In this document: positions 1 through 17,007 of the stretch, piece after piece
How positions within the stretch are numbered: the stretch's first letter is position 1
How the letters are laid out: every line of letters starts with the position of its first letter
From: Oscillospiraceae bacterium
Lineage (GTDB): Bacteria; Bacillota; Clostridia; Oscillospirales; CAG-272
Length of the DNA: 48,397 bases
Assembly (NCBI GenBank): GCA_015065385.1
Contig: SVQK01000095.1
Location: 1 to 48,397, forward strand
Direction: 5' to 3'
Notes under the pieces: model-generated
What the model saw: the letters and a program-made list of their open reading frames with translations, nothing else
Database searches by the model: none
Told to the model about the DNA's origin: nothing
Program-made: the position numbers and the translations under genes

Positions 1-1002
1 AACGACGACGTGAACATGTCCCAGTCCTCGAACGACACGTTCCCCACTGCGATGCACATTGCCGCAGTTCTCGCTCTGGAGGATAAGCTCATCCCCGCCG
101 TCAACACGCTGATCACCACCTTCCGAAAGCTCGAGGCCATGCACGAGGGGATCGTCAAATCGGGCCGCACCCATCTGCAGGACGCGACGCCCATCCGCTT
201 CTCCCAGGAGATTTCCGGCTGGCGTTCGTCGCTCGAAAAGGATGCGGAGCTAATCAAAAGATCCCTTGAACCGCTCCGTTCCCTCGCGCTGGGCGGAACC
301 GCCGTTGGTACCGGACTGAACGCGCCCGCGGGATTTGACGAAAAGGTCGCCGCCGTCGTATCGGAGATCACCGGGAAGTCCTTCGTCACCGCGGAAAACA
401 AATTCCACGCCCTGACCTCCAAGGACGAGCTGGTCTTCGCCCACGGCGCGGTCAAAGCGCTCGCCGCCGATATGATGAAGATCGCAAACGACGTGCGCTG
501 GCTCGCCTCCGGTCCAAGACTCGGCCTCGGCGAGATCACGATCCCGGAGAACGAGCCCGGCTCCTCCATCATGCCCGGCAAGGTGAATCCCACCCAGTGC
601 GAGGCCGTCACCATGGTGGCCGTGCAGGTGATGGGCAACGACACGGCGGTTTCCATAGCCGCGTCCCAAGGCAATTTCGAGCTGAACGTGTTCATGCCCG
701 TCTGCATCTACAATTTCCTGCAGTCCGTCCGTCTTCTGGCCGAGGCGATCGTGTCCTTCAACGACCACTGCGCCGTCGGGATCCGCGCGAACGGCGAAAA
801 GATGAAGGCTAATCTCTACAACTCTCTCATGCTGGTCACCGCGCTCAATCCCTATATCGGGTACGAAAACGCCGCGAAGACCGCAAAAAAGGCGTTCCGC
901 GACAATATCTCGCTGAAAGAGGCGTGCGTCGAGCTCGGGTTTTTGACCGCCGAACGGTTCGACGAGGTGTTCCATCCCGAGGAAATGGCCGGTCGTTCCT
1001 GA
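1..1002 (+). CDS. fumC: Class II fumarate hydratase, 5'-truncated by the window edge
   Basis: Interconverts L-malate and fumarate in the cytoplasm. The reading frame is open from base 1, so about 130 N-terminal residues lie outside; 333 residues remain. The visible protein has the early [16 protein letters not shown] block, [21 protein letters not shown], and the superfamily signature [16 protein letters not shown]. The GTGLNAP and PTQCEA variants favour fumarase over aspartate ammonia-lyase. It is the first visible gene of the redox operon; hdrB follows after 49 bases with no terminator or promoter in between, so it probably supplies fumarate to the reductase genes at the operon end. Confidence 0.9.
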
Positions 1003-1051
1003 CCGCGCCCGACTTCCTCCGGGAATGATCCGACAGATCGGAGTTTACAGA

Positions 1052-1855
1052 ATGAAAATAGCTTACTACCCAGGCTGTACCTTAAAAAACAAAGCCCGGG
1101 ATCTGGACCGGTACGCACATGAGACAGCCGCCCTTCTGGGAGTGGAACTCGAAGAAATCCCCGAATGGCAGTGCTGCGGCGGCGCGTACACCTCCGCCCG
1201 GGATGAGATCGCCACAAAGCTGGCCTCCGTCCGGGCTCTCGCGGCAGGGCGGGATATGGGCGGCAGGGTCCTCACCGTCTGTTCCGCCTGTCACAATGTG
1301 CTGAAACAGACCAACCACGAGTTCTCCGTCAATCCCGACTTCGACCGGAAGGTCAACAACTATCTGAAGGGCGAGCCGGAATACCACGGGGAAGGCGCGG
1401 TCATCCATTATCTGGAGCTTTTGCGGGACGAGATCGGATTCGACGCCGTAAATGAAAAGGCGGTCCATCCCCTGAAAGGAAAGAAAATCGCCGCGTATTA
1501 CGGATGTCTTCTGCTCCGTCCGTCCGCCGCGCTTGCCTTTGACGATCCGGAGAACCCGTCCGTGATGGAAAATCTCATCCGCGCGCTCGGCGGGGAACCG
1601 GTGATGTATCCCATGCGGAACGAATGCTGCGGCGGATATCTGACGCTCGAAGACCGGGACGCCGCGAAGAAGAGGAGCACCGCCGTCGCGTCCTCCGCAA
1701 AGGAGATGGGCGCGGACTTCATGATCACCGCCTGTCCCCTCTGCCTCTACAATCTGACGAAAAATTCCGACACCGCGATCCCCGTCCGGTATTTCACCGA
1801 AGTGATGGCCGAGGCGATGGGACTGATTCCCGCCGGAGAGGAGGCCCGTTTATGA
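1052..1855 (+). CDS. hdrB: Heterodisulfide reductase subunit B (HdrB), two CCG domains
   Basis: HdrB holds the catalytic noncubane [4Fe-4S] clusters that reduce disulfides in HdrABC complexes. The 267-residue protein has two complete CCG motifs: Cys9, Cys41-Cys42-Gly, Cys77/Cys80, and Cys152, Cys192-Cys193-Gly, Cys228/Cys231. The start at 1052 is chosen because GGAG lies 8 bases upstream; an in-frame ATG at 1025 would add nine unlikely residues. Its stop overlaps the hdrC start (ATGA). All cluster ligands are present, so it should be active. In a non-methanogen the substrate would be a protein or small-molecule disulfide (DsrC-like or unknown), or HdrB may serve as the thiol side of the fumarate reductase encoded downstream. 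Confidence 0.9.
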   Translation: MKIAYYPGCTLKNKARDLDRYAHETAALLGVELEEIPEWQCCGGAYTSARDEIATKLASVRALAAGRDMGGRVLTVCSACHNVLKQTNHEFSVNPDFDRKVNNYLKGEPEYHGEGAVIHYLELLRDEIGFDAVNEKAVHPLKGKKIAAYYGCLLLRPSAALAFDDPENPSVMENLIRALGGEPVMYPMRNECCGGYLTLEDRDAAKKRSTAVASSAKEMGADFMITACPLCLYNLTKNSDTAIPVRYFTEVMAEAMGLIPAGEEARL

Positions 1856-2232
1856 ACGATCTGAAAGACCGGGTGCTCCGCATGAGCGGTTCCGCGGTGA
1901 TCAAATGCATGCGCTGCGGGAAGTGCTCCGCTACCTGCCCCTCCTACGACGAGATGGAATACCATCCCCACGAGTTCGTGTACATCGTGGAGCGCGGCGA
2001 CGTCGAAAAACTGACGGGATCCGAATCCCTGTATAAATGTCTGACCTGCTTCGCCTGTGTGGAACGCTGTCCCAGAGGCGTGGAGCCCGCGAAGGTGGTG
2101 GAGGCCGTCCGTCTGATCGCCGAGCGGGAACAGGGAAAGAACCGGCTGAAACCGGACGATATCCCCGCGCTGCTTGACGCCGATCTTCCGGGACAGGCGC
2201 TCGTCACCGCCCTGAGAAAATACACAAAGTGA
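1852..2232 (+). CDS. hdrC: Heterodisulfide reductase subunit C (HdrC)
   Basis: Small ferredoxin-like subunit that wires electrons from HdrA to HdrB. The 126-residue protein carries two [4Fe-4S] motifs, Cys19-Cys22-Cys25-Cys29 and Cys63-Cys66-Cys69-Cys73, each CxxCxxCxxxCP. Short flanking helices and a charged C-terminus match the family. It overlaps hdrB by four bases and is followed 16 bases later by hdrA, the usual B-C-A order. No transmembrane segment is seen, so it belongs to the soluble HdrABC type rather than membrane HdrDE. Confidence 0.88.
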   Translation: MNDLKDRVLRMSGSAVIKCMRCGKCSATCPSYDEMEYHPHEFVYIVERGDVEKLTGSESLYKCLTCFACVERCPRGVEPAKVVEAVRLIAEREQGKNRLKPDDIPALLDADLPGQALVTALRKYTK

Positions 2233-2248
2233 AAGGAGGGCTTGAACA

Positions 2249-4240
2249 ATGCAGAAAATCGGCGTATTCGTATGCCACTGCGGCACCAACATCGCGGCGA
2301 CCGTCGATGTGAAGGCTGTAGCCGAAGCGCTGGGACGCGAGCCCTCCGTGGTCGTATCTCAGGATTATACCTATATGTGCTCCGAGTCCGGTCAGAACCT
2401 CATCAAGGACTCCATCCGCGACTACGGGCTGACGGGCGTGGTGATCTGTTCCTGCTCCCCCCGGATGCATGAGGCGACCTTCCGCAGGGCAGCGGCTCAG
2501 GCAGGGCTCAACCCCTACATGGTGGAAATCGCCAACATCCGCGAGCAGTGCTCCTGGATCCACAAGGACAAGGCGGAGGCGACGGAGAAGGCTATTATTC
2601 TCGGACGCGCCGCTATCGCCAAAGTTCAGCACAACACGCCGCTGATCGCCGGGGAGAGTTCCGTCACCAAGCGCGCTCTGGTTATCGGCGGCGGTATCGC
2701 CGGGATCCAGACGGCGCTCGACATCGCCGAGGCGGGTTTCCCCGTGGATATCGTGGAACAGAAGCCTACCATCGGCGGCAAAATGGCCCAGCTCGACAAG
2801 ACTTTTCCGACGCTGGACTGCTCCGCGTGCATCCTCACACCGAAAATGGTGGACTGCGCGCAGAATGAAAACATCAAAATCTACTCCTACAGCGAGGTGG
2901 AGTCCGTCTCCGGGTTCGTCGGAAACTTCACGGTGAAGATCCGCCGGAAAGCCCGGTATGTGGACGAGGTCAAATGCACCGGCTGCGGCCTCTGCACCGA
3001 GAAATGCCCTGTGAAGAAGGTGCCGAACGAGTTCAACCTCGGCATGGACAACCGGCGCGCGATCTATATCCCCTTCGCGCAGGCTGTTCCGAAGATCGCC
3101 GTCATCGATCCGGACTGGTGCAACATGCTGAAAAACGGCAAATGCGGCGTCTGCTCGAAAGTCTGCACCGCCGGCGCAATCGACTACAAGCAGAAGGATA
3201 CGGTCATCGAGGAACACTACGGCGCGATCGTGGCCGCGACCGGATTTGAAATCTCCGACGTGAGCCGGTACGACGAGTACGCTTACTCGCAGTCGAAGGA
3301 CGTCATCACCTCCCTCGAATTCGAGCGGCTGACCAACGCGGCGGGACCCACGGGCGGTACGCTGCTCCGGCCCTCAGACGGAAAGCATCCTCACACCATC
3401 GTGTTCATCCAGTGCGTCGGATCGCGCTGCACGCCGGACAAAGGCAAGCCCTACTGCTCCGGGATCTGCTGCATGTACACCGCCAAGCACGCCATGCTGA
3501 CCCGGGAGAAATACCCGGACACCGAGGTCTACGTCTTTTATATCGACGTGCGGACGCCGGGGAAGAACTTCGACGAGTTCTACCGCCGCGCCGTGGAGGA
3601 ATTCGGCGTTCACTACATCAAAGGCGCGGTGGGAAAGGTCTCTCCCAGAGCCGACGGAACCCTCGACGTTCAGGCATCCGATCTGATCATGAACGAACAG
3701 CTCCACATCAGCGCGGATCTGGTCGTGCTGGCGGCGGCGATCGAACCGTCGAAAACGGCGCGTTCTCTTGCCACCATGCTCACCGCGTCCATGGACACCA
3801 ACGATTTCTTCACGGAAGCCCACCCCAAGCTCCGTCCGGTGGAATCTCCCACAGCGGGCATCTTCCTCTCCGGCGTATGTCAGGGACCGAAGGACATTCC
3901 CTCCACGGTATCTCAGGCCTCCGCCTGCGCAGCCAAGGTGGTGGGACTGTTGATCAAAAACAAGCTGACGGGCAACCCCTGCGTAGCGCACTCCGACGAG
4001 CTGATGTGCAACGGATGCTCGAACTGCGCGAATGTCTGCCCCTACGGGGCCATCACCTACAGCGACAAGGAATTCCGCATGCCCGACCGGACCACCAAGA
4101 CCCGGCGCGTGGCGTGGGTGAATCCGGCGGTGTGTCAGGGCTGCGGCGCGTGTACGGTGGCCTGTCCCTCCGGAGCGATGGATCTCTCCGGATTTTCCAA
4201 TTCACAGATCATGGCGGAGGTTGACGCGATATGCAAGTAA
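2249..4240 (+). CDS. hdrA: Heterodisulfide reductase subunit A (HdrA), bifurcating flavoprotein
   Basis: HdrA carries the FAD at which electron pairs are split in flavin-based bifurcation. The 663-residue protein has an N-terminal region with CHCG (about residues 9-12), a Rossmann FAD-binding GGGIAGIQ (about 146-153), a ferredoxin insert CTGCGLCTEKCP (about 243-254), and a C-terminal two-cluster ferredoxin domain (CNGCSNCANVCP near 588 and CQGCGACTVACP near 630). Length and order match canonical HdrA. A good SD (AAAGGAGG) precedes the ATG. The last 10 bases overlap the mvhD-like gene, implying translational coupling. The C-terminal clusters would deliver low-potential electrons to ferredoxin. 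Confidence 0.9.
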   Translation: MQKIGVFVCHCGTNIAATVDVKAVAEALGREPSVVVSQDYTYMCSESGQNLIKDSIRDYGLTGVVICSCSPRMHEATFRRAAAQAGLNPYMVEIANIREQCSWIHKDKAEATEKAIILGRAAIAKVQHNTPLIAGESSVTKRALVIGGGIAGIQTALDIAEAGFPVDIVEQKPTIGGKMAQLDKTFPTLDCSACILTPKMVDCAQNENIKIYSYSEVESVSGFVGNFTVKIRRKARYVDEVKCTGCGLCTEKCPVKKVPNEFNLGMDNRRAIYIPFAQAVPKIAVIDPDWCNMLKNGKCGVCSKVCTAGAIDYKQKDTVIEEHYGAIVAATGFEISDVSRYDEYAYSQSKDVITSLEFERLTNAAGPTGGTLLRPSDGKHPHTIVFIQCVGSRCTPDKGKPYCSGICCMYTAKHAMLTREKYPDTEVYVFYIDVRTPGKNFDEFYRRAVEEFGVHYIKGAVGKVSPRADGTLDVQASDLIMNEQLHISADLVVLAAAIEPSKTARSLATMLTASMDTNDFFTEAHPKLRPVESPTAGIFLSGVCQGPKDIPSTVSQASACAAKVVGLLIKNKLTGNPCVAHSDELMCNGCSNCANVCPYGAITYSDKEFRMPDRTTKTRRVAWVNPAVCQGCGACTVACPSGAMDLSGFSNSQIMAEVDAICK

Positions 4241-4707
4241 ACGAACAGACCGGTTTCGTTCCCACCATCGTGGCCTTCTGCTGCAACTGGTGTTCTTACG
4301 CGGGGGCGGATCTGTCCGGCACGAACCGGCTCTCCTATCCCGCCAATATCAAGATCATCCGCGTCCCCTGCTCCTGCCGGGTCAATCCCATCTTCTTCCT
4401 CCGTGCGTTCCAGCGCGGGGCGGACGGTGTGATCCTCTGCGGATGCCATCCCGGGGACTGCCATTATACCACCGGCAACTACTATACCAGACGGCGCATG
4501 ACGCTGCTCTTCTCCATGCTCGACTTTCTCGGAATCGAGCGGAACCGGACCCGCGTCGAGTGGGTATCCGCCGCGGAGGGGCAGAAGTTCGCCGAAACCA
4601 TGCGGAGCTTTGCCGAGGAAATCGCCGCGCTCGGTCCCAACCGCCGTCTGGCGGATCTGAGATGCCGGGAAGACGCGGAAGAGGGGAGGGACGAACATGC
4701 GGTATAA
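4231..4707 (+). CDS. mvhD: MvhD/FlxD-type [2Fe-2S] subunit
   Basis: MvhD-family proteins (methyl-viologen-reducing hydrogenase delta subunit) pass electrons from a donor module to HdrA. The 158-residue protein shows the conserved cysteine set: CCNWC near residue 18, a PCSCR block near 46, and CGCHPGDCHY near 72. No hydrogenase large or small subunit is nearby. Fe-S and FAD/NAD subunits follow instead, so this copy is best read as FlxD of an NADH-fed FlxABCD-HdrABC complex. It overlaps hdrA by 10 bases and the next gene by 11. Confidence 0.87.
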   Translation: MQVNEQTGFVPTIVAFCCNWCSYAGADLSGTNRLSYPANIKIIRVPCSCRVNPIFFLRAFQRGADGVILCGCHPGDCHYTTGNYYTRRRMTLLFSMLDFLGIERNRTRVEWVSAAEGQKFAETMRSFAEEIAALGPNRRLADLRCREDAEEGRDEHAV

Positions 4708-5686
4708 CGAAATCGCCGCCGCCATGATCGCGCGCGCGAAGGAGCTTCTCTCCGACGGCACGGTCAACCGCGTCATCGGCTGGAAACGCGGAGAATTCTG
4801 CTACGACGTCACCCCCGCCGTGTTCGAAACCGCGGAAGAGCTGGAAAAGGATTTTGTCTACGACGCGTTCTGCGGGGCAAACGTCTCGAAGTATTTGATC
4901 CGGGAGTCCGAAAAGCCCGGAAAGATTCTCTGCTTCCTCAAGCCCTGCGATACCTTCTCCTTCAATCAGTTACTGACGGAGCACCGCATCCGCCGCGAAA
5001 ACGTCCATGTGATCGGCATCCCCTGCGAGGGCATGGCGGACATGAGGCGGATCCGCAAAGCCGGAATCGACGGAGTCACCGGAATCCGGGAAGAGGACGG
5101 GGGATTTACCGTTGAAACGCTTTACGGTGAGGAACGGATCTCCGTATACGACGCGCTTGCGGAACGCTGCCTCTCGTGTAAATCGAAACGGCATGTCGTA
5201 TATGACGAGCTGATCGGCGAGGAGGGCGAGGACCATCCGGACGCTCCCCGGTTCGAACAGGTGGCAAAGCTGGAAGAGATGACGGCGGAGGAACGGTTTG
5301 CGTTCTGGAGAGGTGAGCTCTCACGCTGCATCCGCTGCAATGCCTGCCGGAACGTATGTCCCGCCTGCATCTGCGAAAACTGCGTGTTTGATAATCCGGA
5401 CTCCGGGATCTCCCAGAAGGCCGCCGCCGACACATTTGAAGAGAATATGTACCACATCATCCGTGCATTCCATGTGGCCGGTCGGTGTACCGACTGCGGC
5501 GAGTGCTCCCGGGTCTGCCCTGAGAACATTCCGCTGCATCTGTTGAACCGGAAATTCATCAAGGACATCGACGAACTCTACGGCGTTTACCGGGCCGGAG
5601 AGAAGGCAGACGCGCGCAATCCTCTGGTCGATTTCACCGAGGCAGACGCGGAAGCACGCGTTGTCCACGAAAGGGGGAAGGCCTGA
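4697..5686 (+). CDS. Flx-type Fe-S subunit, FrhB/FdhB-like N-terminus plus ferredoxin domain
   Basis: A 329-residue cytoplasmic iron-sulfur protein. The N-terminal half resembles the F420-hydrogenase beta-subunit family (KPCDTFSFNQL near residue 82, CEGM near 112, CLSCKSK near 159). The C-terminal part has two [4Fe-4S] motifs, CIRCNACRNVCP (about residues 211-222, followed by extra cysteines in ACICENC) and CTDCGECSRVCP (near 264). Position between FlxD and the FlxA-like subunit matches the FlxB/FlxC components of Flx-Hdr operons; I cannot tell which letter applies. Likely role: electron relay between the NADH-oxidising flavoprotein and FlxD/HdrA. It overlaps its neighbours by 11 bases upstream and one base downstream. 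Confidence 0.78.
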   Translation: MRYNEIAAAMIARAKELLSDGTVNRVIGWKRGEFCYDVTPAVFETAEELEKDFVYDAFCGANVSKYLIRESEKPGKILCFLKPCDTFSFNQLLTEHRIRRENVHVIGIPCEGMADMRRIRKAGIDGVTGIREEDGGFTVETLYGEERISVYDALAERCLSCKSKRHVVYDELIGEEGEDHPDAPRFEQVAKLEEMTAEERFAFWRGELSRCIRCNACRNVCPACICENCVFDNPDSGISQKAAADTFEENMYHIIRAFHVAGRCTDCGECSRVCPENIPLHLLNRKFIKDIDELYGVYRAGEKADARNPLVDFTEADAEARVVHERGKA

Positions 5687-6717
5687 TGCTCTATCTTCCA
5701 TCCGTTAAACTCAACGCCTTCCTTGAAAAGACGGCGGAAAAGCGGAAACTCTACGTTCCCGTGGACGAAGAGCCGGGAAAGTCTTCCTATCGGCCGTGGG
5801 AGCCGGGTGTCGTCGTATCCCGCGGCCTGAACACTGTCCGGAGCGCGAAGGATTTCTTCTTCCCGCAGACGGAGAACCTCGCCGGATTCCGGATTCAAAA
5901 CAAGAAGATCGAAGTGCTGGATCCCAGAAAGGAAACGGAGGACTTCGCGGTGTTCGGCGTAAGAGCCTGCGACGCCGCCTCTTTCGGAATCCTTGACAAG
6001 GTCTTTCTCTCGGAACCGGTGGACACTTATTACAAAAACAGACGCGAGCACGGGCTGATCCTTACCGCATCCTGCCGCCGACCTGCCGAAACCTGCTTCT
6101 GCTCCGTCTTCGGCATCGACGCGGCGGAACCGGGCGGGGACGTGAGCTTCACGGACGACGGGAACGGCTGGTTCCTCGCCTCCCATACGGACAAAGGCGC
6201 GGCGTTCCTCGGCGAAGTCGCCTCTCTGCTCGAAGAACGGGACGAATCCGGCGCGGAGGCGGCAAAAGCTAAGACGCGCGAGATCGTGGCGAGACTTCCC
6301 CTGAGCGGCCTGAAAACCGATTCCTTCGGAGGAGGGAAGACCGCGGAGCTGTTTGACCGTCCGGAATGGGCGGAGCTGTCCGAGGCCTGTATCGGCTGCG
6401 GGACCTGTACCTTTGTCTGCCCCACCTGCCAGTGCTACGACATCCGCGACTTTGACACAGGACGCGAAATCCGGCGGTTCCGCTGCTGGGATTCCTGCAT
6501 GTACTCCGATTTCACGAAAATGGCGGGCGGAAATCCCCGGCTGACCCAGAAGGAGCGGTTCCGCCAGCGGTTCATGCACAAGCTGGTGTATTTCCCGGAA
6601 AACAACGGCGGCAAGTTCGGGTGCGTGGGATGCGGACGCTGTCTCAGGTCCTGCCCCATTCACATGAACATCGTCAAGGTTATGAAGCGGCTTTCGGAGG
6701 ACGACAATGAACAGTGA
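5686..6717 (+). CDS. Flx-type 4Fe-4S dicluster subunit, HydB/AsrA-like
   Basis: A 343-residue protein of the sulfhydrogenase-beta / anaerobic sulfite reductase A family, known as an electron-transfer partner of HydG/AsrB-type FAD/NAD subunits. Visible motifs are VRACDAAS near residue 90, a CRRPAETCFCS segment near 128, and two [4Fe-4S] motifs, CIGCGTCTFVCPTC near 234 and CVGCGRCLRSCP near 312. The next gene encodes exactly such a FAD/NAD partner, overlapping by 11 bases. No signal peptide or membrane segment is seen. Together with the preceding gene it completes the FlxB/FlxC pair. Confidence 0.8.
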   Translation: MLYLPSVKLNAFLEKTAEKRKLYVPVDEEPGKSSYRPWEPGVVVSRGLNTVRSAKDFFFPQTENLAGFRIQNKKIEVLDPRKETEDFAVFGVRACDAASFGILDKVFLSEPVDTYYKNRREHGLILTASCRRPAETCFCSVFGIDAAEPGGDVSFTDDGNGWFLASHTDKGAAFLGEVASLLEERDESGAEAAKAKTREIVARLPLSGLKTDSFGGGKTAELFDRPEWAELSEACIGCGTCTFVCPTCQCYDIRDFDTGREIRRFRCWDSCMYSDFTKMAGGNPRLTQKERFRQRFMHKLVYFPENNGGKFGCVGCGRCLRSCPIHMNIVKVMKRLSEDDNEQ

Positions 6718-7534
6718 AACCCTCATTCCGCAGGCGGTCGTCGTGGAGGAGATCCGGCAGGACACACCGGATGTAAAGACCTTCCGCATCCTCACAAGGG
6801 ACGGGAAGAAACCCTTCGAGCATATGCCCGGCCAGTGCGCCATGGTGTCGATCCCCGGCGTGGGAGAAGGAATGTTCTCCATCACGTCAAGCCCCACCAA
6901 CGCCGCTTATATGGAATTCTCCATCAAGAAATGCGGTCATCTCACAAACTGGCTCCACATGTTGGAACCGGGCATGGAGGTGACGATCCGCGGACCGTAC
7001 GGGCGTCCCTTCCCGGTGGAGGACGAGCTGAAAGGCCGGGATCTGCTCTTCATCGCGGGCGGCATCGGACTGGCTCCCCTCCGCTCGGTCATCAACTATG
7101 TGCGCGACAAGCGGGATCAGTACGGTGACGTGCAGATCATCTACGGCGCGCGCTCGAAGGACGATCTGGTGGACTACGCCGAGATCCTCGACGAGTGGTC
7201 CGTGACGCCGGGATTTACCGTCAACCTGACCATCGACCGGGAGCAGGACAGCTGGGACGGCCACGTCGGCTTTGTGCCCAATTATGTGAAGGAGCTGAAT
7301 CCGGATCTCTCAAAGACCGTTCTGGTGTGCGGCCCGCCGATCATGATCAAATTCACGGTGGCGGGGCTGACGGAGCTCGGCTTCACTCCGGAGCAGATCT
7401 ACACCACCATGGAGCTTCGCATGAAGTGCGGCATCGGTAAATGCGGACGCTGCAACATCGGCGCGAAATACGTCTGCAAGGACGGTCCCGTCTTCCGGTA
7501 TGACGAGCTGGGCGAGCTGCCCGACGAATATTGA
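6707..7534 (+). CDS. flxA: FlxA-like NAD(P)H-oxidising FAD/[2Fe-2S] subunit
   Basis: A 275-residue ferredoxin-NADP reductase-fold protein of the HydG/AsrB/dihydroorotate-dehydrogenase-B electron-transfer class. FAD-binding beta-barrel motifs are MPGQCAMVSIPG near residue 44 and FSITSSP near 62. The pyridine-nucleotide domain has FIAGGIGLAPLRS near 115 and LVCGPPIM near 206. The C-terminus has the [2Fe-2S] site CGIGKCGRCNIG plus a fourth Cys in YVCKDGP. It would oxidise NADH (or NADPH) and feed Flx/HdrA, as for FlxA of the Flx-Hdr complex studied in Desulfovibrio. Cofactor choice cannot be read with confidence. Confidence 0.83.
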   Translation: MNSETLIPQAVVVEEIRQDTPDVKTFRILTRDGKKPFEHMPGQCAMVSIPGVGEGMFSITSSPTNAAYMEFSIKKCGHLTNWLHMLEPGMEVTIRGPYGRPFPVEDELKGRDLLFIAGGIGLAPLRSVINYVRDKRDQYGDVQIIYGARSKDDLVDYAEILDEWSVTPGFTVNLTIDREQDSWDGHVGFVPNYVKELNPDLSKTVLVCGPPIMIKFTVAGLTELGFTPEQIYTTMELRMKCGIGKCGRCNIGAKYVCKDGPVFRYDELGELPDEY

Positions 7535-7556
7535 GCGGATCAAACAGGAGAAAAAC

Positions 7557-8231
7557 ATGGAAAACTTTGTCAACGTTTTCCTTTTCGGAAAATGCTACTC
7601 CGTGCCCGACAATCTGACGATCATGGGCGCGATGGAATACGCGGGCTATCAGCTGGTCCGGGGCTGCGGATGCCGGAACGGATTCTGCGGAGCCTGCGCT
7701 ACGATCTACCGCATCAAGGGCGACCGCGAGCTGAAAGTCTGTCTGGCCTGTCAGACCAAGGTCGAGAACGACATGTATGTGGCAACCCTGCCGTTCTTCC
7801 CCCTGATCAAGGAACAGTACGATATCACCAAGGTCTCCCCGGACGTGTCGATCATGATGCAGCTCTACCCGGAGATCTACGCCTGCGTAGGATGCAACGC
7901 CTGCACCAAATCCTGTACGCAGGGACTGAACGTCATGCAGTACATCGCTTACGCCCAGCGCGGGGACTTTGCGAAATGCTCGGAGGAATCCTTCGACTGC
8001 GTCATGTGCGGTGTGTGCTCGTCCCGCTGTCCGGCCGGAATCTCCCACCCGCAGGTCGCGCTGCTCGCAAGACGGCTCAACGGACGGTATCTGGCTCCGG
8101 AATCGGCGCATCTGACCGAACGGGTACAGGAAATCCGTGACGGCAAGTTCGAGGATCTTCTTTCGGCACTCATGCAGAAGCCGGTGGAAGAGCTGAAAGA
8201 GCTCTACAACAACAGGGAAATCGAGGCATAA
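7557..8231 (+). CDS. Fumarate reductase/TfrB-type Fe-S subunit without CCG domain
   Basis: A 224-residue electron-transfer subunit of the SdhB/FrdB/TfrB kind. An N-terminal [2Fe-2S] domain has Cys39, Cys44, Cys47 and Cys62 (Cys37 and Cys65 also present) in a CRNGFCGAC context. A C-terminal ferredoxin domain has two full four-cysteine motifs, Cys110-113-116-120 and Cys148-151-154-158. The HdrD-like CCG domain of methanogen TfrB is absent, while HdrB in the same operon supplies one. ATG 7557 has CAGGAG six bases ahead. It lies 15 bases before the flavoprotein gene. No membrane-anchor subunit is encoded nearby, so the pair should be soluble. Confidence 0.8.
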   Translation: MENFVNVFLFGKCYSVPDNLTIMGAMEYAGYQLVRGCGCRNGFCGACATIYRIKGDRELKVCLACQTKVENDMYVATLPFFPLIKEQYDITKVSPDVSIMMQLYPEIYACVGCNACTKSCTQGLNVMQYIAYAQRGDFAKCSEESFDCVMCGVCSSRCPAGISHPQVALLARRLNGRYLAPESAHLTERVQEIRDGKFEDLLSALMQKPVEELKELYNNREIEA

Positions 8232-8246
8232 GAAAGGAGCCGGGAT

Positions 8247-9866
8247 ATGTACACAGGCGAAATCCTTGAATCGATGAAAAAGGTGGAAGCCGCCCGGGAC
8301 GCCAATCTTGCGCTGGAACCGAGGCGGATGACGGCGGAGGAAAAGGACGCGCTCCTCTCCGCCTATCACCCGGACTATAAGGAATCGGAATTTGAAACCC
8401 TGAAAATGGGCGTCAACCGCGGGGACAAGGTGCCGCACGAGCTGGCCGCCCTTCTGCAGGGAAAGCCCCGGATCGGGGAAGGGGACGCGGATCTTTCGAA
8501 AATCGACTACGATACCGACGTGCTCATTATAGGCGGAGGCGGCGCGGGCGCGTCTGCGGCCATTGAAGCGGACAACAACGGCGTGAAGTGCATGATCGTC
8601 ACCAAGCTCCGGATCGGGGACGCCAACACCATGATGGCGGAGGGCGGCATTCAGGCGGCGGACAAGCCGAACGACAGCCCCGCGGTCCATTATCTCGACG
8701 CATTCGGAGGCGGTCACTTCGCCGCGAAGCCCGAGCTGCTCTACAAGCTGGTGAACGAAGCGCCGGACGCCATTCAGTGGCTGAACCGGCTGGGCGTGGA
8801 GTTCGACAAGGCCCCGGACGGAACGATGATCACCACGCACGGCGGCGGGACCTCACGGAAGAGAATGCACGCGGCGCGGGACTATACCGGAGCCGAAATT
8901 ATGCGGACGCTCCGTGACGAAGTGCTCAACCGCGGGATCCCGGTCATCGACTATACCGCCGCGGTCGAACTGCTCACGGACGAAACCGGACGATGCACGG
9001 GCGCGGTTCTCATGAATATGGAGACCCGGGAACTTCTGGTAGCGCGCGCGAAGACGGTTATCCTTGCGACGGGCGGCGCGGGAAGGCTCCACTATCAGGG
9101 ATTCCCGACGTCCAACCATTACGGCGCGACGGCGGACGGCCTGATCCTCGGCTACCGGATCGGCGCGAAGCTCCTTTACGCGGACACTCTCCAGTACCAT
9201 CCAACGGGCGCGGCCTATCCGGATCAGATTTACGGCGCGCTTGTGACGGAGAAGGTGCGCTCGCTCGGCGCAAAGCTGGTGAACGCGAAAGGCGAGGTGT
9301 TCATGCACCCGCTTGAGACTCGTGACGTCTCCGCGGCATCCATCATACGCGAATGCGGCGACCGGGGCAACGGAGTCTCCACGCCGAACGGAACCGGCGT
9401 CTGGCTGGATACGCCCATGATCGAAAAGATCGGCGGAGAAGGCACGATCCTCGCCCGGATCCCCGCCATGCACCGCATGTTTGCCAAATACGGGATCGAC
9501 ATTCGCAAAGAGCCGATCCTCGTGTATCCCACGCTCCACTATCAGAACGGCGGTCTGGACATCACTCCGGACGGCATGACTGCGGTCGAAAACCTTTACG
9601 CAGCCGGCGAAGTCGTGGGAGGTATCCACGGTCGGAACCGTCTGATGGGGAACTCCCTTCTGGACGTGATCGTCTTCGGACGCAACGCTGGACGGAACGC
9701 CTCAGAGAAGGCAAAGTCCGTGGAACCCGGAGCCCTGACCCTTACCCGCCTCGCCTCGTTCGAAGAAGAACGCGAAAAGGCCGGGATCGACGATGTCACC
9801 GTTTCCCCGAGACTGCTGCCTGTCTACACGCACGGCAATCCCGACGTCAGAAAACTGCCGTTCTGA
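8247..9866 (+). CDS. Soluble fumarate reductase-type flavoprotein (FrdA/TfrA-like)
   Basis: A 539-residue FAD-binding_2 protein expected to reduce fumarate to succinate. An unusual 85-90-residue polar N-terminal extension precedes the dinucleotide-binding GGGGAGASAA (residues 96-105). The MAEGGIQAA segment has Asn127 where SdhA/FrdA carry the His that binds FAD covalently, so FAD is probably non-covalent, as in TfrA and NadB. Other marks are HGGGTSRKR, YHPTGA, TEKVRSLGAKLVNAKGE, and GEVVGGIHGRNRLMGNSLLD. The C-terminal helical domain of SdhA is almost missing. L-aspartate oxidase or another FAD dehydrogenase remains possible, but the Fe-S partner gene and fumC favour fumarate. Confidence 0.78.
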   Translation: MYTGEILESMKKVEAARDANLALEPRRMTAEEKDALLSAYHPDYKESEFETLKMGVNRGDKVPHELAALLQGKPRIGEGDADLSKIDYDTDVLIIGGGGAGASAAIEADNNGVKCMIVTKLRIGDANTMMAEGGIQAADKPNDSPAVHYLDAFGGGHFAAKPELLYKLVNEAPDAIQWLNRLGVEFDKAPDGTMITTHGGGTSRKRMHAARDYTGAEIMRTLRDEVLNRGIPVIDYTAAVELLTDETGRCTGAVLMNMETRELLVARAKTVILATGGAGRLHYQGFPTSNHYGATADGLILGYRIGAKLLYADTLQYHPTGAAYPDQIYGALVTEKVRSLGAKLVNAKGEVFMHPLETRDVSAASIIRECGDRGNGVSTPNGTGVWLDTPMIEKIGGEGTILARIPAMHRMFAKYGIDIRKEPILVYPTLHYQNGGLDITPDGMTAVENLYAAGEVVGGIHGRNRLMGNSLLDVIVFGRNAGRNASEKAKSVEPGALTLTRLASFEEEREKAGIDDVTVSPRLLPVYTHGNPDVRKLPF

Positions 9867-9870
9867 AATC

Positions 9871-9884
9871 GCGGAAAAATCCGC
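9871..9884 (+). repeat. Small perfect hairpin between flavoprotein gene and small ORF
   Basis: GCGGA (9871-9875) and TCCGC (9880-9884) pair around an AAAA loop, with no T-tract after it. It lies directly behind the flavoprotein stop and ahead of the strong ribosome site of the 55-aa gene. It could be an RNA 3'-end stabiliser or processing site within the operon. Confidence 0.4.
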
Positions 9885-9905
9885 CAATGAGAAGGGAGGA
9901 TTCTC

Positions 9906-10073
9906 GTGAATCCGACGATGCTGTATCTTCCGGCATATGCCGAATCTTTGACCGCCTCTCCCGCGACCGGGGATCCCGTGACGATCATCGCGGTTGTGGT
10001 CGGTGTTTCCGTCGTCGCCATGATCGTACTCTCCGTACTCTCAAAGCGCGGCAGGGGCGGGCGGAGGAAATAG
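9906..10073 (+). CDS. 55-residue single-pass membrane peptide with sorting-signal-like tail
   Basis: A GTG-initiated gene not recognised by name. The start is set by AGAAGGGAGGA five bases upstream. The translation runs from MNPTMLYLPAYAES through a SPATGD motif (residues 18-23) to about 22 hydrophobic residues and a basic tail ending KRGRGGRRK. This resembles the C-terminal cell-wall sorting region of Firmicutes surface proteins (xPxTG, membrane span, positive tail) but with no exported domain ahead. By the positive-inside rule the tail is cytoplasmic. It is the last gene of the fumarate/Hdr operon, 39 bases after the flavoprotein and just before the terminator, so it may be a membrane tether for the soluble complex. 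Function unknown. Confidence 0.6.
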   Translation: MNPTMLYLPAYAESLTASPATGDPVTIIAVVVGVSVVAMIVLSVLSKRGRGGRRK

Positions 10074-10090
10074 AATCTTTCCGGACAAAC

Positions 10091-10128
10091 AAAACGCGGA
10101 CAGGCTGGATGGCTTGAACCGCGTTTTT
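10091..10128 (+). terminator. Bidirectional intrinsic terminator
   Basis: AAAACGCGG (10091-10099) pairs with CCGCGTTTT (10119-10127), followed by T-rich sequence on the plus strand and by TTTTGTTTG on the minus strand. It ends the redox operon and the convergent ECF transporter transcript. Confidence 0.8.
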
Positions 10129-10729: not shown

Positions 10730-11149
10730 TCAGCCCTTCGTGTAGGTCAGCTCGAAGTGGTCTCCGTCGTGGATCTCGGTGTCGGACGCGCCGGTCATGA
10801 GATACTCGCCGTTCTGGGAGAGAGCCCAGTATGACTGGTCCACATTCCAGTCCGCGGTCTCGCCGTCCACGGTAGTGATGTACAGACCGTACTCTTCGAC
10901 TGGGCCTTCGACGAAGCCCGCCTCGAGAAGCGCGTCCGCCAGCTTGGAGGCTTTGGTGGTGATCGTGTGATCGGTGTGCTCGCCGGCGGAGTTGATGACT
11001 TCGACCGTGATGGTGATTTCACCGCTCGCGCTGCCGTCCGTTCCCGTCGCCGCCTCTTCCTTCTTGCCGCAGGACAGGACGAAGAGCGCCGTGACCGCAC
11101 ACAGCATGACAAGGACGGAGATTCTGATGAATGCTTTGAAGTTCTTCAT
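10730..11149 (-). CDS. DUF4430 (transcobalamin-like) lipoprotein
   Basis: A 139-residue lipoprotein. The N-terminus is basic, then a hydrophobic signal ending in the lipobox LFVLSC (Cys27), then a Gly/Ser/Thr linker and a DUF4430 domain (IEVINSAG-type beta start, TTKASKLADALLEAG, YGLYITTVDG, DQSYWALSQNGEYL, DGDHFELTYT). This domain resembles the C-terminal domain of eukaryotic transcobalamin/intrinsic factor. Start 11149 has AAGGAG nine bases upstream; an upstream in-frame ATG at 11182 lacks one. With the riboswitch and the ECF gene it probably forms a surface corrinoid-binding and uptake system. Confidence 0.83.
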   Translation of the reverse strand: MKNFKAFIRISVLVMLCAVTALFVLSCGKKEEAATGTDGSASGEITITVEVINSAGEHTDHTITTKASKLADALLEAGFVEGPVEEYGLYITTVDGETADWNVDQSYWALSQNGEYLMTGASDTEIHDGDHFELTYTKG

Positions 11150-11239
11150 AAATGCGTCTCCTTGCATCAAAAAATGGCGCAAACGCGCGGAGAATGCGGT
11201 TTTCTGATCCGACCGCAGCCGGAGCGCGCGGCTTCTTCT

Positions 11240-11340
11240 CCGCAGACGAGGCAGGTATCCCGGCTTGCGCGTCCTCCGCTGATTCCTGCGTCAAGGACGA
11301 AATGACAATTGACGTCGGATGAACTCCGGCTTCAACTCCC
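11240..11340 (-). promoter_or_regulatory. Second B12-box-like leader segment
   Basis: The 16-mer read on the minus strand at 11250-11265, AGCCGGGATACCTGCC, matches the B12-box consensus better than the one inside the main aptamer. It is preceded by GAAGCCGGAGTTCATCC (complement of about 11317-11333), which looks like a degraded copy of the GGTGnnAATCC core, and by a CGTCAA/TTGACG hairpin. It may be a second compact aptamer, a partial duplication, or an alternative pairing partner in the expression platform. No clear terminator follows; only a weak GCGC hairpin with a T-run near 11169-11190 is seen. Confidence 0.4.
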
Positions 11341-11344
11341 CTGT

Positions 11345-11512
11345 CCCGGCAGAAATCCCGGCTGTCCTCCGCCTCGCCTTCCCGGTCACCCGGTGACTTT
11401 CCGGCATGCGGTTGCCGGCGGTGGAAAACAGGATGATTCAAAACGCGCTCACGGTGGCGGTCCCGCACAGGATTCACACCTGTTTCCGGTTTGAACGACG
11501 GCGCGTACCTCC
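11345..11512 (-). ncRNA. Cobalamin riboswitch
   Basis: The minus-strand leader holds the conserved aptamer core GGAAACAGGTGTGAATCCTG followed by CGGGACCGCCACCGTGAGC (complement of about 11444-11487). Further on come a GTCACCGGGTGACCGGGAAGG block and a B12 box, AGCCGGGATTTCTGCC, at 11348-11363. Order and spacing match the adenosylcobalamin-class riboswitch. Transcription would begin near 11519. It precedes a DUF4430 lipoprotein and an ECF S component, so corrinoid would repress uptake genes. The long 3' leader lacks an obvious terminator, so control may act on translation or through the second box. Confidence 0.88.
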
Positions 11513-11525
11513 CGTTTGCCCTGCC

Positions 11526-11554
11526 ATTATACCACATTCCTCGGCCAGATTCAA
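11526..11554 (-). promoter_or_regulatory. Sigma-A promoter of the cobalamin-riboswitch transcript
   Basis: On the minus strand, TTGAAT (11549-11554), a 17-base spacer and TATAAT (11526-11531). The predicted start near 11519 lies a few bases before the riboswitch 5' stem. Confidence 0.85.
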
Positions 11555-11589
11555 GGCGTACGGGAAAAAGATGACTGCCTCCGGGACAG

Positions 11590-11623
11590 AAAAAGCGTCC
11601 GAACCACGGATCGATCCGGACGC
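11590..11623 (-). terminator. Intrinsic terminator of the GH32 gene
   Basis: Minus-strand GCGTCCG and CGGACGC (11617-11623 with 11595-11601) form a 7-bp stem followed by TTTTT (11590-11594), 18 bases after the GH32 stop codon. Confidence 0.85.
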
Positions 11624-11640
11624 GGGGGATCCCGTTTGTC

Positions 11641-13158
11641 TTACAGCCCCAGTTCCTCGATTTTCAGGTCGAGAGAGGCTTGTTCTCCGTCAAGATAGAC
11701 GCCCTTCGAACGGTCCGCGAGGATGGAGCGGGTGACGTAAATCAACCCTCCGTCCGCGAACATCTCCAGCGACAGGGTGTCGGCAAGAATCAGCAAATTC
11801 CTTTCGCCCGTGTAGGTCAGCTGAGCGGTTACATCCCCCACCCGGAGCTCGTTTTTCTCAGGATCGACTGCGATCGCCTCCCCGAAAACTTCCAGCGTGA
11901 AAGGCCCGTCTTCGATTTCCATCGAAAGAAGCAGGGCGCGGTTTTCGGAAACGCCCGTCCGTGAGAACGACACGCCCTTCCGGATCCTCAGTTGATCGGT
12001 GCGGGATTTTTTCAGCAGGGCGATCTCCGGGACGAGCTTCGAGCCGAGCCGCCAGATCCCGCCGACCTCGTGCAGGAACATCTCCACCGGGAAGCCCATC
12101 TGCGAATGAAAGACCGCGCCGGGAGCCGGAACGTTGTCCCACGCGATCTTGATCCGCCGCTTTCCCGTTCCGGAGAAGGTCTGAGCGGCATAGGAGGGCC
12201 CGGGTCCGATCATATAGCGGAGCGGCTCCTGCGAAGGCACGAACCCGTCCTTTGTCAGATCGCCGACAATATAGGTGTCATGCGCGCCGGAAAAGACCCA
12301 TTTCACGCCGTCCTTTGCCGGAAAGGGATAGAAATCCGGGCATTCGTTGTCCATCGGCATCCTGACGTCGCAGAAGCGCGTCCAGTCCAGCAGGTTGTCC
12401 GAGGTGAAGACGGTATAATCGCATCCGTCCAGATAGAGGGAAAGGGTGTACTTCCCGAGCTCGTCCGACCACTGAACTTTGGGATCCCGGTTCGCCCCGA
12501 CGATGTGGGGGATAATGGGATTTTTATCGTACTTCGTAAAGCTTTCGCCCCCGTCTGTGGAGTATGCGAGGCACTGCGTGAACGGTACGCCCGCCGACAT
12601 CTTGCTGCTGTCCCCGGCCGCCGTATAGAAGAGCAGCATCGCGTCCTTTCCGAACCCGGCGACATTCCTCTCGTCGATCACCGCGGATCCGGAAAACATC
12701 GTTCCGCGCTCGTCCGGGAAGAGCACGTCTCCGAGGTCGGTCCAGTGGAGCAGATCGGGGGATACGGCGTGTCCCCACGTCATATTGCCCCATTCCGTGC
12801 TCATCGGGTTGTGCTGGCTGAACATATGATAGATGCCGTCCGCGAACACAAGACCGTTCGGGTCGTTGGTCCATCCGAGCGTGGTCGTGAAATGGACCGC
12901 AGGACGGAGATAGGTTCCGCCGGGGATCTCGCCGATCTTCGGAAGACGTTCCGAGGGCTCGGCGGGAAGGACGCGTCCCTCTCCGTCCACGATGGAGCAC
13001 TCCCCGAACCGGGTCACGTCCACATGGGCGTAAAACGCAGGGTAGTCGGGATCATAGGATGCGGTAAAATCGGAGACGGTTTTTCCGTCGGGCGTGCGAA
13101 TGAAGAACGTCTGCTTCGGTTTCGCATCGTTGACAGGGAAGAGAAGATAGCGCGGCAT
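11641..13158 (-). CDS. GH32 beta-fructosidase (sucrase/levanase-like)
   Basis: A 505-residue glycoside hydrolase of family 32, which releases fructose from sucrose or fructans. Catalytic signatures are complete: WTNDPNGL with nucleophile Asp99, RDP (Arg224-Asp225) and ECPD with acid/base Glu272. The N-terminal 85 residues form an extra beta-rich segment before the five-bladed propeller, and a beta-sandwich follows after about residue 400. There is no signal peptide, so it is cytoplasmic and suited to imported sucrose, phosphorylated sucrose or short fructo-oligosaccharides. It has its own promoter and terminator and no transporter or kinase beside it. An AAGGAGG site precedes the ATG. Confidence 0.88.
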   Translation of the reverse strand: MPRYLLFPVNDAKPKQTFFIRTPDGKTVSDFTASYDPDYPAFYAHVDVTRFGECSIVDGEGRVLPAEPSERLPKIGEIPGGTYLRPAVHFTTTLGWTNDPNGLVFADGIYHMFSQHNPMSTEWGNMTWGHAVSPDLLHWTDLGDVLFPDERGTMFSGSAVIDERNVAGFGKDAMLLFYTAAGDSSKMSAGVPFTQCLAYSTDGGESFTKYDKNPIIPHIVGANRDPKVQWSDELGKYTLSLYLDGCDYTVFTSDNLLDWTRFCDVRMPMDNECPDFYPFPAKDGVKWVFSGAHDTYIVGDLTKDGFVPSQEPLRYMIGPGPSYAAQTFSGTGKRRIKIAWDNVPAPGAVFHSQMGFPVEMFLHEVGGIWRLGSKLVPEIALLKKSRTDQLRIRKGVSFSRTGVSENRALLLSMEIEDGPFTLEVFGEAIAVDPEKNELRVGDVTAQLTYTGERNLLILADTLSLEMFADGGLIYVTRSILADRSKGVYLDGEQASLDLKIEELGL

Positions 13159-13196
13159 GGGGGAAAACCTCCTTGATGCGTATTCGGATCGATCTG

Positions 13197-13225
13197 ATTA
13201 TACCATGTCAAAGGGCTTTTTGCAA
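13197..13225 (-). promoter_or_regulatory. Promoter of the GH32 gene
   Basis: Minus-strand TTGCAA (13220-13225), 17-base spacer, TATAAT (13197-13202). A short leader of about 30 bases with AAGGAGG leads to the GH32 start. No operator-like inverted repeat was seen. Confidence 0.8.
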
Positions 13226-13243
13226 GTGCAGGTTCCCTCTTCG

Positions 13244-13296
13244 AACAAAAGAACCGTCTCCCGCGCTCCCGGATAACAGGAGAACGGAAGACGGTC
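13244..13296 (-). terminator. Intrinsic terminator of the purine operon
   Basis: On the minus strand, GACCGTCTTCC pairs with GGGAGACGGTTC (arms about 13286-13296 and 13252-13262), followed by a CTTTTGT run at 13244-13249. It starts nine bases after the purL stop. Confidence 0.7.
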
Positions 13297-13304
13297 AAAT
13301 CTGT

Positions 13305-16300
13305 TTATCTGAAATACTCCGTAGCGGAGGAGAAGAGCTTCATGTCGTAGTTCCCGGGAACGTTGACGTAAAGGCCCTCGTTCCAGCGTTCGCTGTGGCC
13401 CATCTTGCCGAGCACTCTGCCGTCGGGGGAGGTGATCCCTTCGATGGCCAGCACGGAACCGTTCGGGTTGCAGTCGATATCCATCGTCGCGCGGCCTTCG
13501 AGATCCACATACTGAGTGGCGATCTGGCCGTTCTCGACGAGCTGTTTCAGCATGGTGTCGGAGGCGATGAAGCGTCCTTCGCCGTGTGAAATCGGAACGT
13601 TGTACACCTCACCGATTTCGCATCCCGCCAGCCACGGGGATTTGTTGGAGGCGATCCGGGTGCGGACAATGCGGGACTGGTGACGGCCGATCTTGTTGAA
13701 GGTCAGCGTCGGGCAGGTCTCATCGGTGTCCAGAATCTCGCCGAACGGAACGAGCCCCAGCTTGACGATCGCTTGAAAACCGTTGCAGACGCCGCACATG
13801 AGGCCGCCGCGGGTCTTCAATAGTTCGTTCGTCCCCTCCTTGACCGCGCCGCTGCGGAAGAAGGCTGTGATGAACTTTCCGCTGCCGTCCGGTTCATCGC
13901 CGCCCGAGAATCCGCCGGGGATGAACACCGCCTGAGCCTGTTTCAGCTCCCGCGCGAAGGCGTCCACAGATTCGGCAACCGCAGAGGAGGTGAGGTTGCG
14001 CAGAACCATGATCTTTGCGTCAAAGCCCGCCGCGGAGAGCGCTTTCGCCGTGTCGTACTCGCAGTTGGTTCCGGGGAAGGCCGGGATCAGTACGCGCGGC
14101 TTGGCGAAATGCTCCGTCGTCCGGACACGGGTAAAGCTCTTCGCCGTGACGGTTTCCACCTGCTCCGCGTCGTTCTGAGAGCGAGCATGAACGGGATAGA
14201 CGCCTTCGAGGACACTGTTCCACGTCTTCTCAAGGGAGGAGAGGCAGACGCGCTCGTCACCGAACGTCAGGGCGTATTCATTCGCAGTCTCGCCGATGAT
14301 CCGGGCACCGGGCAGCTCGCCGTCGGCCAGCTCGATCACAAAGGAGCCGTACCGATAGCCGAACAGCTCGTCAAGCGCGATCCCGGAGAGCTTCGCGCCG
14401 ATCCGGTTGCCGACGGCCATCTTGAAGACCGCCTCCGCAACGCCGCCGTAAGAGGGCGTCCAGACGGAGAGGATCCTGCTTGAATCGATCCCTGCGCGGA
14501 TCGCGTTGAAATTCAGAATCAGGGAATCCGGCGTGGGAAGGCCGCGTCCGTCCGTCTCCGGATCGAGCAGGGCGATCTTGTGTCCGGCTGCCTTGAACTC
14601 GGGGGAAATCACCGCAGACACGGGATCCACCGTGACGGCGAAGGAAACGAGCGTCGGGGGAACGTCCAGCTTTTCAAAGGATCCGCTCATGGAGTCCTTG
14701 CCGCCGATGGACGCGATTCCGAGATCCATCTGTGCTTCGAACGCACCGAGAAGGGCAGACAGAGGCTTGCCCCAGCGCACGGGATCCCGGAGCGGCTTTT
14801 CAAAGTACTCCTGGAAGGTGAGATAGACCTCACGGAAAGACGCGCCGGACGCGATCAGACGGGCGACGGATTCCACCACGGCGAGGTAGGAGGCGTGATA
14901 GGGACTCTTCTCCGCGATCATGGGATTGTAGCCCCATGCCATCAGAGACGCGGTGGAGGCGTTGCGGTCGGACACCGAGATCTTGTGCGCCATCGCCTGA
15001 GCAGGGGTGGTCTGATACTTCCCGCCGAAGGGCATGAGCACGGATCCCGCGCCGATGGTGGAGTCGAACCGCTCCGAAAGCCCTCTCTGGGACGCCACAT
15101 TCAGATCGGACACGAGCGCGTTCATCCCGTCCGCAAAGTCCGCGGGAATTACCTTGTCCCACGGCTCGGGATTCAGGGGAGCGATATCGATGTGCTTTTC
15201 CGCGCCGTTTGAGGAGAGGAAGTCCCGGGACAGATCCACGATCGTTTTCCCTCTCCACGTCATGGTGAGGCGGGGCGTTTCGGTCACGACGGCTACGACG
15301 GTAGATTCGAGGTTTTCGGCGTCCGCCAGAGCGCAGAAGCGATCCGCGTCTTCCTTCGCCACTACGACCGCCATGCGCTCCTGAGATTCGCTGATGGCAA
15401 GCTCGGTGCCGTCAAGACCGTCGTATTTCTTCGGAACCCTGTCGAGATCGATCGCAAGTCCGTCCGCCAGCTCGCCGATCGCCACGGACACGCCGCCCGC
15501 GCCGAAGTCGTTGCACCGTTTGATGAGCAGGGAGGCCTCCGGATTCCGGAACAGCCGCTGGAGCTTTCTCTCCTCGGGCGCGTTGCCCTTCTGGACCTCC
15601 GCGCCGCAGCTTTCGAGCGAATGGAGGTTGTGGGACTTGGAGGAACCGGTGGCGCCGCCGCATCCGTCCCGTCCTGTCCGACCGCCGAGCAGGATCACAA
15701 GATCGCCGGGAACGGGTCTTTCGCGCCGAACGGTCTCTTCGGGAGCAGCCGCGATGACCGCGCCGATCTCCATGCGCTTCGCCACATACCCCGGATGGTA
15801 GAGCTCGCTGACCTGACCGGTTGCAAGGCCGATCTGGTTGCCGTAGGAGGAATAACCGGCCGCGGCTGTGGTCACAAGCTTCTTCTGAGGGAGCTTGCCT
15901 TCGAGCGTCTTTTCGACAGGCTGGGTGGGATCCCCGGCTCCGGTGACACGCATCGCGGCATAGACGTAGCTTCTGCCGGAAAGCGGATCCCGGATCGCGC
16001 CGCCGATGCAGGTTGCCGCGCCGCCGAACGGCTCAATTTCCGTCGGATGGTTGTGCGTTTCATTCTTGAAGAGAAGGAGCCACGGTTCGGTCTTTCCCGC
16101 GATCTCCACGTCGATCTTCACCGTGCAGGCGTTGATTTCCTCGGATTCGTCCAACCGCGGGAGCTTTCCCTCCGCTTTGAGTGCGCGAACGGCAACGGTG
16201 GCAAGATCCATGAGGTTCACGGGCTTCTTGTCCCTGCCGAGCGCGTGACGGGTCGCCGTGTACCGGTTCCACGCGGAATCGAGCACCGGATCCTCGAATT

Positions 16301-17006: not shown

Positions 17007-17007
17007 T

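What the first reader, a model, noticed from the sequence alone, without database searches (positions are those of the whole stretch)
1..10128. Candidate soluble electron-bifurcating fumarate reductase: fumC + HdrABC + FlxABCD-type + Frd/Tfr-type pair in one operon
Seen: a gapless plus-strand run of fumC, hdrBCA, mvhD/flxD, two Fe-S Flx-like genes, an FlxA-like NAD(P)H subunit, a fumarate-reductase Fe-S subunit and its flavoprotein, with overlaps and no internal terminator before 10091. Known: FlxABCD-HdrABC couples NADH oxidation to ferredoxin and a disulfide acceptor; methanogen TfrAB couples thiols to fumarate. Inference: here fumarate is the high-potential acceptor, giving 2 NADH + Fd(ox) + fumarate to 2 NAD + Fd(red) + succinate without a membrane. 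I do not know of a described enzyme with this full gene set.
Basis: partly seen in the sequence, partly recalled or inferred. Interest (0 to 1): 0.78.

Follow-up and report, generated by a model that had tools for sequence, protein, structure and literature searches.

The report
Bifurcating fumarate reductase operon, already proposed
A Clostridia genome, probably from a gut, carries a ten-gene operon that most likely uses NADH to make succinate and charge ferredoxin in the same step; the same gene set was already proposed for this role in another Clostridium, but it looks more widespread and more modular than I found described.

Summary
In detail: fumC (cut by the contig start), hdrBCA, flxDCBA and a Frd Fe-S/flavoprotein pair lie on one strand, closed by a terminator at 10091-10127. 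The linkage is not chance: hdrB-to-frdA order is intact in all 84 related loci long enough to show it (78 distinct contigs), and in 147 genomes of the order all 27 with FrdB also have HdrA. The flavoprotein keeps seven fumarate-reductase catalytic positions in 130-131 of 131 sequences; FrdB's second half is HdrC-like. The genome shows RnfC but no menA or complex-II-type flavoprotein. Best reading: a soluble electron-bifurcating NADH:ferredoxin/fumarate reductase.

The gene set is not new: the Pseudoclostridium thermosuccinogenes 'succinate operon' has the same 1+7+2 genes and the same mechanism was proposed (PMC7282089). I found no biochemical proof. Added here: wide distribution among Clostridia, and frdBA as a cartridge found beside four different Hdr layouts, or none, often near fumarate- or succinate-handling genes.

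The parts
1..1002 (+). fumC, class II fumarate hydratase, 3' part (5' end off the contig)
   Evidence: fumC_II TIGR00979 533 bits over profile 128-457/458; under its whole-protein cut-off of 664.75, as expected for a part
1052..1855 (+). hdrB: two CCG domains, ligands for two non-cubane [4Fe-4S] clusters
   Evidence: PF02754; PDB HdrB 8rvv_B E 1.1e-35, 5odc_B E 9.7e-26; 10 cysteines conserved 102/102
1852..2232 (+). hdrC: dicluster ferredoxin-like subunit
   Evidence: TIGR03290 63 bits, cut-off 160; 8 Cys 105/105
2249..4240 (+). hdrA: FAD subunit of the bifurcating HdrA type, full length, not fused to MvhD
   Evidence: 5odc_A E 4.6e-208 over 3-660; HdrA2 model 797 bits, cut-off 1100
4231..4707 (+). 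flxD (MvhD/FlpD): electron entry to HdrA
   Evidence: PF02662 183 bits; matches the C-terminal part 641-774 of the HdrA2 model
4697..5686 (+). flxC-like Fe-S protein
   Evidence: Fe-S cluster domain matches only; the name FlxC is by position and recall
5686..6717 (+). flxB-like Fe-S protein, sulfhydrogenase-beta type
   Evidence: ShyB 179.5 bits, cut-off 690; 9nez_B E 1.6e-49
6707..7534 (+). flxA-like FAD/NAD(P)H subunit with an iron-sulfur domain
   Evidence: PF00175, PF10418, PF00970
7557..8231 (+). frdB: N-terminal [2Fe-2S] domain plus HdrC/RnfC-like dicluster domain
   Evidence: Cys 39,44,47,65 and 110,113,116,120,148,151,154,158 in 144/144
8247..9866 (+). frdA: fumarate-reductase flavoprotein without a Succ_DH_flav_C match, with an N-terminal segment of about 87 residues before the FAD domain
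   Evidence: PF00890; TfrA model 346 bits, cut-off 718; catalytic residues 130-131 of 131; fold
9906..10073 (+). 55-codon ORF, one predicted TM segment, role unknown, not conserved
   Evidence: no match in 144 loci
10091..10127 (+). intrinsic terminator closing the operon

Best explanation
A soluble electron-bifurcating NADH:ferredoxin/fumarate reductase. NADH reduces FlxA (inferred from its domains). Electrons pass through the FlxB/FlxC/FlxD Fe-S chain to the HdrA flavin (inferred from the homology of HdrA and FlxD). HdrA splits each pair: one electron goes to ferredoxin, the other through HdrC and HdrB to FrdB and then to the FrdA flavin, where fumarate made by FumC becomes succinate. Net: 2 NADH + fumarate + Fd(ox) to 2 NAD+ + succinate + Fd(red). 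Ferredoxin can then be reoxidised by Rnf. Shown: gene content, conserved linkage, conserved catalytic and cluster residues, and no match to menA or to a complex-II-type flavoprotein domain in a 94%-complete genome. Inferred: complex formation, bifurcation, direction and electron path.
Against: No activity measured in anything I read. HdrB keeps all ten ligands of both non-cubane clusters (102/102), so it could still reduce a disulfide. frdBA has no hdr match in the stretch read in 17 of 38 phylum loci (three of these stretches reach under 3 kb upstream), so it does not always sit beside Hdr. FlxB relatives (E <= 1e-20) are in 168 of 398 phylum genomes against 39 with FrdB, so Flx-type modules mostly serve other partners. 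fumC is missing upstream in 9 of 82. Neither PEP carboxykinase family was found in the own genome, and the route to oxaloacetate is known only from a partial pyruvate-carboxylase-type domain near a contig start.
Confidence: 0.74

Rival explanations
1. Disulfide shuttle: Flx-Hdr bifurcates NADH to ferredoxin and a small or protein disulfide at HdrB, and FrdBA is a separate thiol:fumarate-type reductase fed by the resulting dithiol. The net reaction is the same, with a diffusible carrier in between.
For: HdrB has both intact CCG motifs; thiols are named as a Flx-Hdr product in PMC7282089 (passages); a part of TfrB resembles HdrB (38 bits).
Against: FrdB has no CCG-type site of its own; its second half is HdrC-like, which would suit docking to HdrB. 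Strict linkage. No candidate carrier gene in the operon.
Confidence: 0.13
2. Plain NADH:fumarate reductase: the Flx-Hdr-Frd chain passes all electrons to fumarate without reducing ferredoxin.
For: The downhill step needs no coupling (potentials).
Against: HdrA is full length and matches the HdrA of the methanogen complex 5odc end to end; a plain reductase would not obviously need hdrA and flxD.
Confidence: 0.06
3. Reverse (confurcating) succinate dehydrogenase making NADH from succinate and reduced ferredoxin.
For: Flavoproteins of this fold can run both ways (recalled).
Against: Mean donor potential (+33 and about -420 mV, the latter recalled) is about -194 mV, too high to reduce NAD at -320 mV without strong product removal; no methylmalonyl-CoA mutase match in the genome.
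Confidence: 0.03
4. FrdA acts on another substrate (aspartate oxidase, urocanate or other enoate reductase).
Against: Residue set and fumarase, aspartase-type and succinyl-CoA ligase neighbours point to fumarate/succinate. L-aspartate oxidase shares much of that residue set (recalled), so the neighbours weigh more.
Confidence: 0.04

Closest known systems
Pseudoclostridium thermosuccinogenes 'succinate operon' (CDQ83_RS03365-03315; PMC7282089, passages seen)
   Same: Fumarate hydratase, 7-gene Flx-Hdr, 2-gene fumarate reductase in one operon, with the same bifurcation proposal
FlxABCD-HdrABC of Desulfovibrio vulgaris (Ramos et al. 2015, seen only as a reference; details recalled)
   Same: HdrABC plus FlxABCD-type NADH module
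   Different: There tied to ethanol metabolism with a disulfide acceptor, no frdBA or fumC (recalled)
Methanogen thiol:fumarate reductase TfrAB (Heim et al. 1998, seen only as a reference)
   Same: TfrA is the best NCBIfam match of FrdA; FrdB, HdrC and HdrB weakly match (30-38 bits) successive parts 19-93, 132-220 and 414-486 of TfrB
   Different: Not fused; scores far below the TfrA and TfrB cut-offs; NADH and HdrA modules added
tfrAB-korABCD-flxABCD-hdrABC cluster of tubeworm symbionts (PMC6315080, PMC11636981, passages seen)
   Same: Fumarate reductase interspersed with Flx-Hdr; direct electron delivery suggested there
   Different: Part of a reductive TCA cluster with 2-oxoglutarate:ferredoxin oxidoreductase; sequences not compared here

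Membership tests
FlxABCD-HdrABC complex | hdrA, hdrB, hdrC plus four flx-type genes together | tested here: met
   FlxC named by position
FlxABCD-HdrABC complex | NADH-dependent ferredoxin reduction by bifurcation | not testable with these tools
   needs biochemistry
P. thermosuccinogenes-type succinate operon | fumarate hydratase + 7 Flx-Hdr genes + 2 Frd genes | tested here: met
   gene counts agree with the published text
P. thermosuccinogenes-type succinate operon | sequence homology of each protein | not tested
   its sequence was not reached
Thiol:fumarate reductase TfrAB | TfrB fused to an HdrB-like domain | tested here: not met
   FrdB is 224 aa without a CCG match; HdrB is separate
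Thiol:fumarate reductase TfrAB | TfrA score over curated cut-off | tested here: not met
   346 of 718 bits
Complex II (quinol:fumarate reductase) | Succ_DH_flav_C domain and covalent-FAD histidine in the flavoprotein | tested here: not met
   No PF02910 match in FrdA; the position is Asn in 131/131 (role of that position recalled)
Complex II (quinol:fumarate reductase) | quinone made by the cell | tested here: inconclusive
   no menA match in own genome, but the genome is 94% complete and no other quinone gene was searched
Fumarate reductase flavoprotein fold | fold and substrate-binding/proton-transfer residues | tested here: met

The most novel reading that the evidence does not exclude
frdBA is an exchangeable soluble fumarate-reductase cartridge whose HdrC-like FrdB plugs directly onto HdrB, so that the non-cubane clusters of HdrB serve as a wire, not a disulfide-reducing site. 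Clostridia have joined it several times to different donors (Flx-Hdr for NADH, HdrCB alone, HdrCBA-MvhD beside a 2-oxoacid:ferredoxin oxidoreductase, a cytochrome b/Fe-S protein), building unfused Tfr-like enzymes.
Probability: 0.45. Interest if true: 0.62.

Novelty: new member of a known kind. Interest (0 to 1): 0.45.

Why it matters
Succinate formation in Clostridia without an evident quinone-linked fumarate reductase would then yield reduced ferredoxin, hence H2 or an Rnf ion gradient, and not only dispose of NADH. That changes ATP and hydrogen budgets for these fermentations, many of them in guts and rumens by the titles of the nearest relatives. The FrdB gene is common: 27 of 147 genomes of the order and 39 of 398 of the phylum, own genome included, so one biochemical test would apply widely.

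Tried and rejected
Complex II and aspartate oxidase readings were set aside on domains, residues and neighbours. A second Sdh/Frd of complex-II type in the genome: no PF02910 match. The small TM ORF as a conserved membrane anchor: no match in 144 loci. A conserved downstream transporter: a SemiSWEET-like protein (name recalled) matches in 22 of 106 window-type loci, 15 of them about 2.3-2.5 kb after the frdB start, and in none of 38 distant ones, so it is not general. Papers: 8 answered searches; 'bifurcating fumarate reductase' had no hit; no passage that I saw reports an assay of this enzyme. A CRISPRi paper on P. thermosuccinogenes silenced malic enzyme, not frd (PMC9044749, passages). PMC12918512 (passages) did not bear on the operon; PMC12887300 (passages) ties its Hdr-Flx to sulfite, not fumarate. 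The first 67 residues of FrdA were barely covered by the fold comparison, so nothing is claimed about their fold. No chance rate was computed for the 12 of 38 fumarase/aspartase neighbours.

Full report
What is there. Ten genes run on the + strand from the contig start to 9866, closed by a terminator at 10091-10127. They encode fumarase C (3' part), HdrB, HdrC, HdrA, FlxD/MvhD, two Fe-S proteins in the FlxC and FlxB positions, a FlxA-like FAD/NAD subunit, a small Fe-S protein (FrdB) and a flavoprotein (FrdA). HdrA matches methanogen HdrA over its whole length (5odc_A, E 4.6e-208), HdrB matches HdrB, and the FlxB-like protein matches a sulfhydrogenase beta subunit.

Is the linkage more than chance? 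In 147 genomes of the same order (an even draw, own included), 27 have FrdB at E <= 1e-15 and 29 have HdrA at E <= 1e-60. All 27 are among the 29. The two others are G142, whose HdrA (80% identical) lies at a contig end, and G096, whose HdrA is only 50% identical. Of the 106 loci L023-L128, 84 had room to show the operon, and all 84 had hdrB-hdrC-hdrA-flxD-flxC-flxB-flxA-frdB-frdA in order on one strand; 22 were too short. Six contigs occur in both sets, so 78 are distinct. fumC sat upstream in 73 of 82 with room.

Beyond the order. In 398 genomes of the phylum (own included), 39 have FrdB. I read the surroundings of the 38 others. frdA follows frdB in 37; the remaining one, L142, ends at a contig edge. 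The donor side varies: Hdr-Flx upstream in 1 (L140); hdrBCA downstream in 4, with flxB about 7 kb downstream of frdB on the same strand (positions; the other flx genes there lie outside the stretches read); hdrC-hdrB only in 5 (L142 reaches only 3 kb upstream); hdr genes or their remains plus an MvhD-like gene in 11 (L152 and L161 cut about 4 kb upstream); and no hdr match in 17, apart from weak hits to Fe-S dicluster proteins, mostly FrdB itself; three of these 17 reach less than 3 kb upstream. In L132, L134 and L136 a protein of 514-541 residues falls loosely into the HdrA-like similarity cluster without being hit by the HdrA query. On an FrdA tree of 70 rows (quick method; 4 of 74 rows dropped as incomplete; 9 of the 80 named loci used) the five contexts need 6 changes, where 4 is the least possible, and L140 lies outside the window clade. 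Repeated joining and old ancestry with losses both remain possible. FlxB relatives are far commoner than FrdB, 168 against 39 of 398 genomes, so Flx modules serve other partners too.

What FrdBA acts on. Class I fumarase or aspartase-type genes lie in the stretch read in 12 of 38 distant loci, malic enzyme in 10 and pyruvate carboxylase in 4 (counted from similarity clusters of which one member each was identified; the lyase of L135 passes a subfamily cut-off for aspartate ammonia-lyase and falls just short of the aspA cut-off). A succinyl-CoA ligase beta gene lies just after frdA in L143, and its cluster recurs in L160. FrdA aligns with E. coli FrdA over residues 88-495. The seven catalytic positions checked are unchanged in 131 of 131 sequences except one Thr that is Ser in one (window plus 130 complete of 142 ORFs found; residue roles recalled, partly echoed by mutant entries listed). 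The position of the covalent-FAD histidine is Asn in all 131.

Cell context. The own genome (94.45% complete) has one full RnfC, no match to PF02910, menA, either PEP carboxykinase family or methylmalonyl-CoA mutase, and one partial pyruvate-carboxylase-type domain near a contig start. Absence in an incomplete draft is not proof. No other quinone gene was searched.

Prior art. PMC7282089 (passages) describes the P. [quoted passage not shown] It reports a roughly 4-fold rise of the operon at low CO2, not significant for every subunit, and recalls that high H2 nearly abolished succinate, which its authors take to fit a ferredoxin link, while Na2S had the opposite effect. PMC6315080 and PMC11636981 (passages) discuss tfrAB with flxABCD-hdrABC in tubeworm symbionts. 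The finding is therefore a new member of a published kind for which my eight searches showed no enzyme assay. What is added is the breadth of conservation and the exchange of donor modules.

Noticed in passing
9906-10073 (+): 55-codon ORF with a strong predicted TM segment and a basic tail between frdA and the terminator; no match in 144 related loci.
   Followed up: partly
L030, L037, L041 and 19 other loci, in 15 of 22 about 2.3-2.5 kb after the frdB start: A SemiSWEET-like small membrane protein (name recalled) matches in 22 of 106 window-type loci, mostly just after frdA; it may be the counterpart of the hypothetical, perhaps transporter, gene reported in P. thermosuccinogenes.
   Followed up: partly
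L137, L142, L148, L150, L162: hdrC-hdrB directly upstream of frdBA with no hdrA or flx match in the stretch (L142 only 3 kb upstream); in L162 preceded by class I fumarase genes and TRAP transporter genes: an apparent unfused Tfr-like unit.
   Followed up: partly
L144, L145, L147, L149, L151, L154, L157, L158: hdrCBA, a second very long HdrA-like protein (1053-1098 aa; in L145 with FAD/NAD-type matches near its start and in its second half), MvhD and frdBA followed by 2-oxoacid:ferredoxin oxidoreductase genes (one scanned, L145).
   Followed up: partly
L165, L166, L167: A 328-335 aa protein follows frdA; in L166 it has Fe-S dicluster and cytochrome b561 matches, suggesting a membrane donor for frdBA there.
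   Followed up: partly
10730-21957 (-): Opposite strand holds a DUF4430 protein, a GH32 enzyme and a purine synthesis run (a PurL-like ORF named by eye, then GARS, AICARFT/IMPCHase and AIR-synthase domains by Pfam).
   Followed up: no
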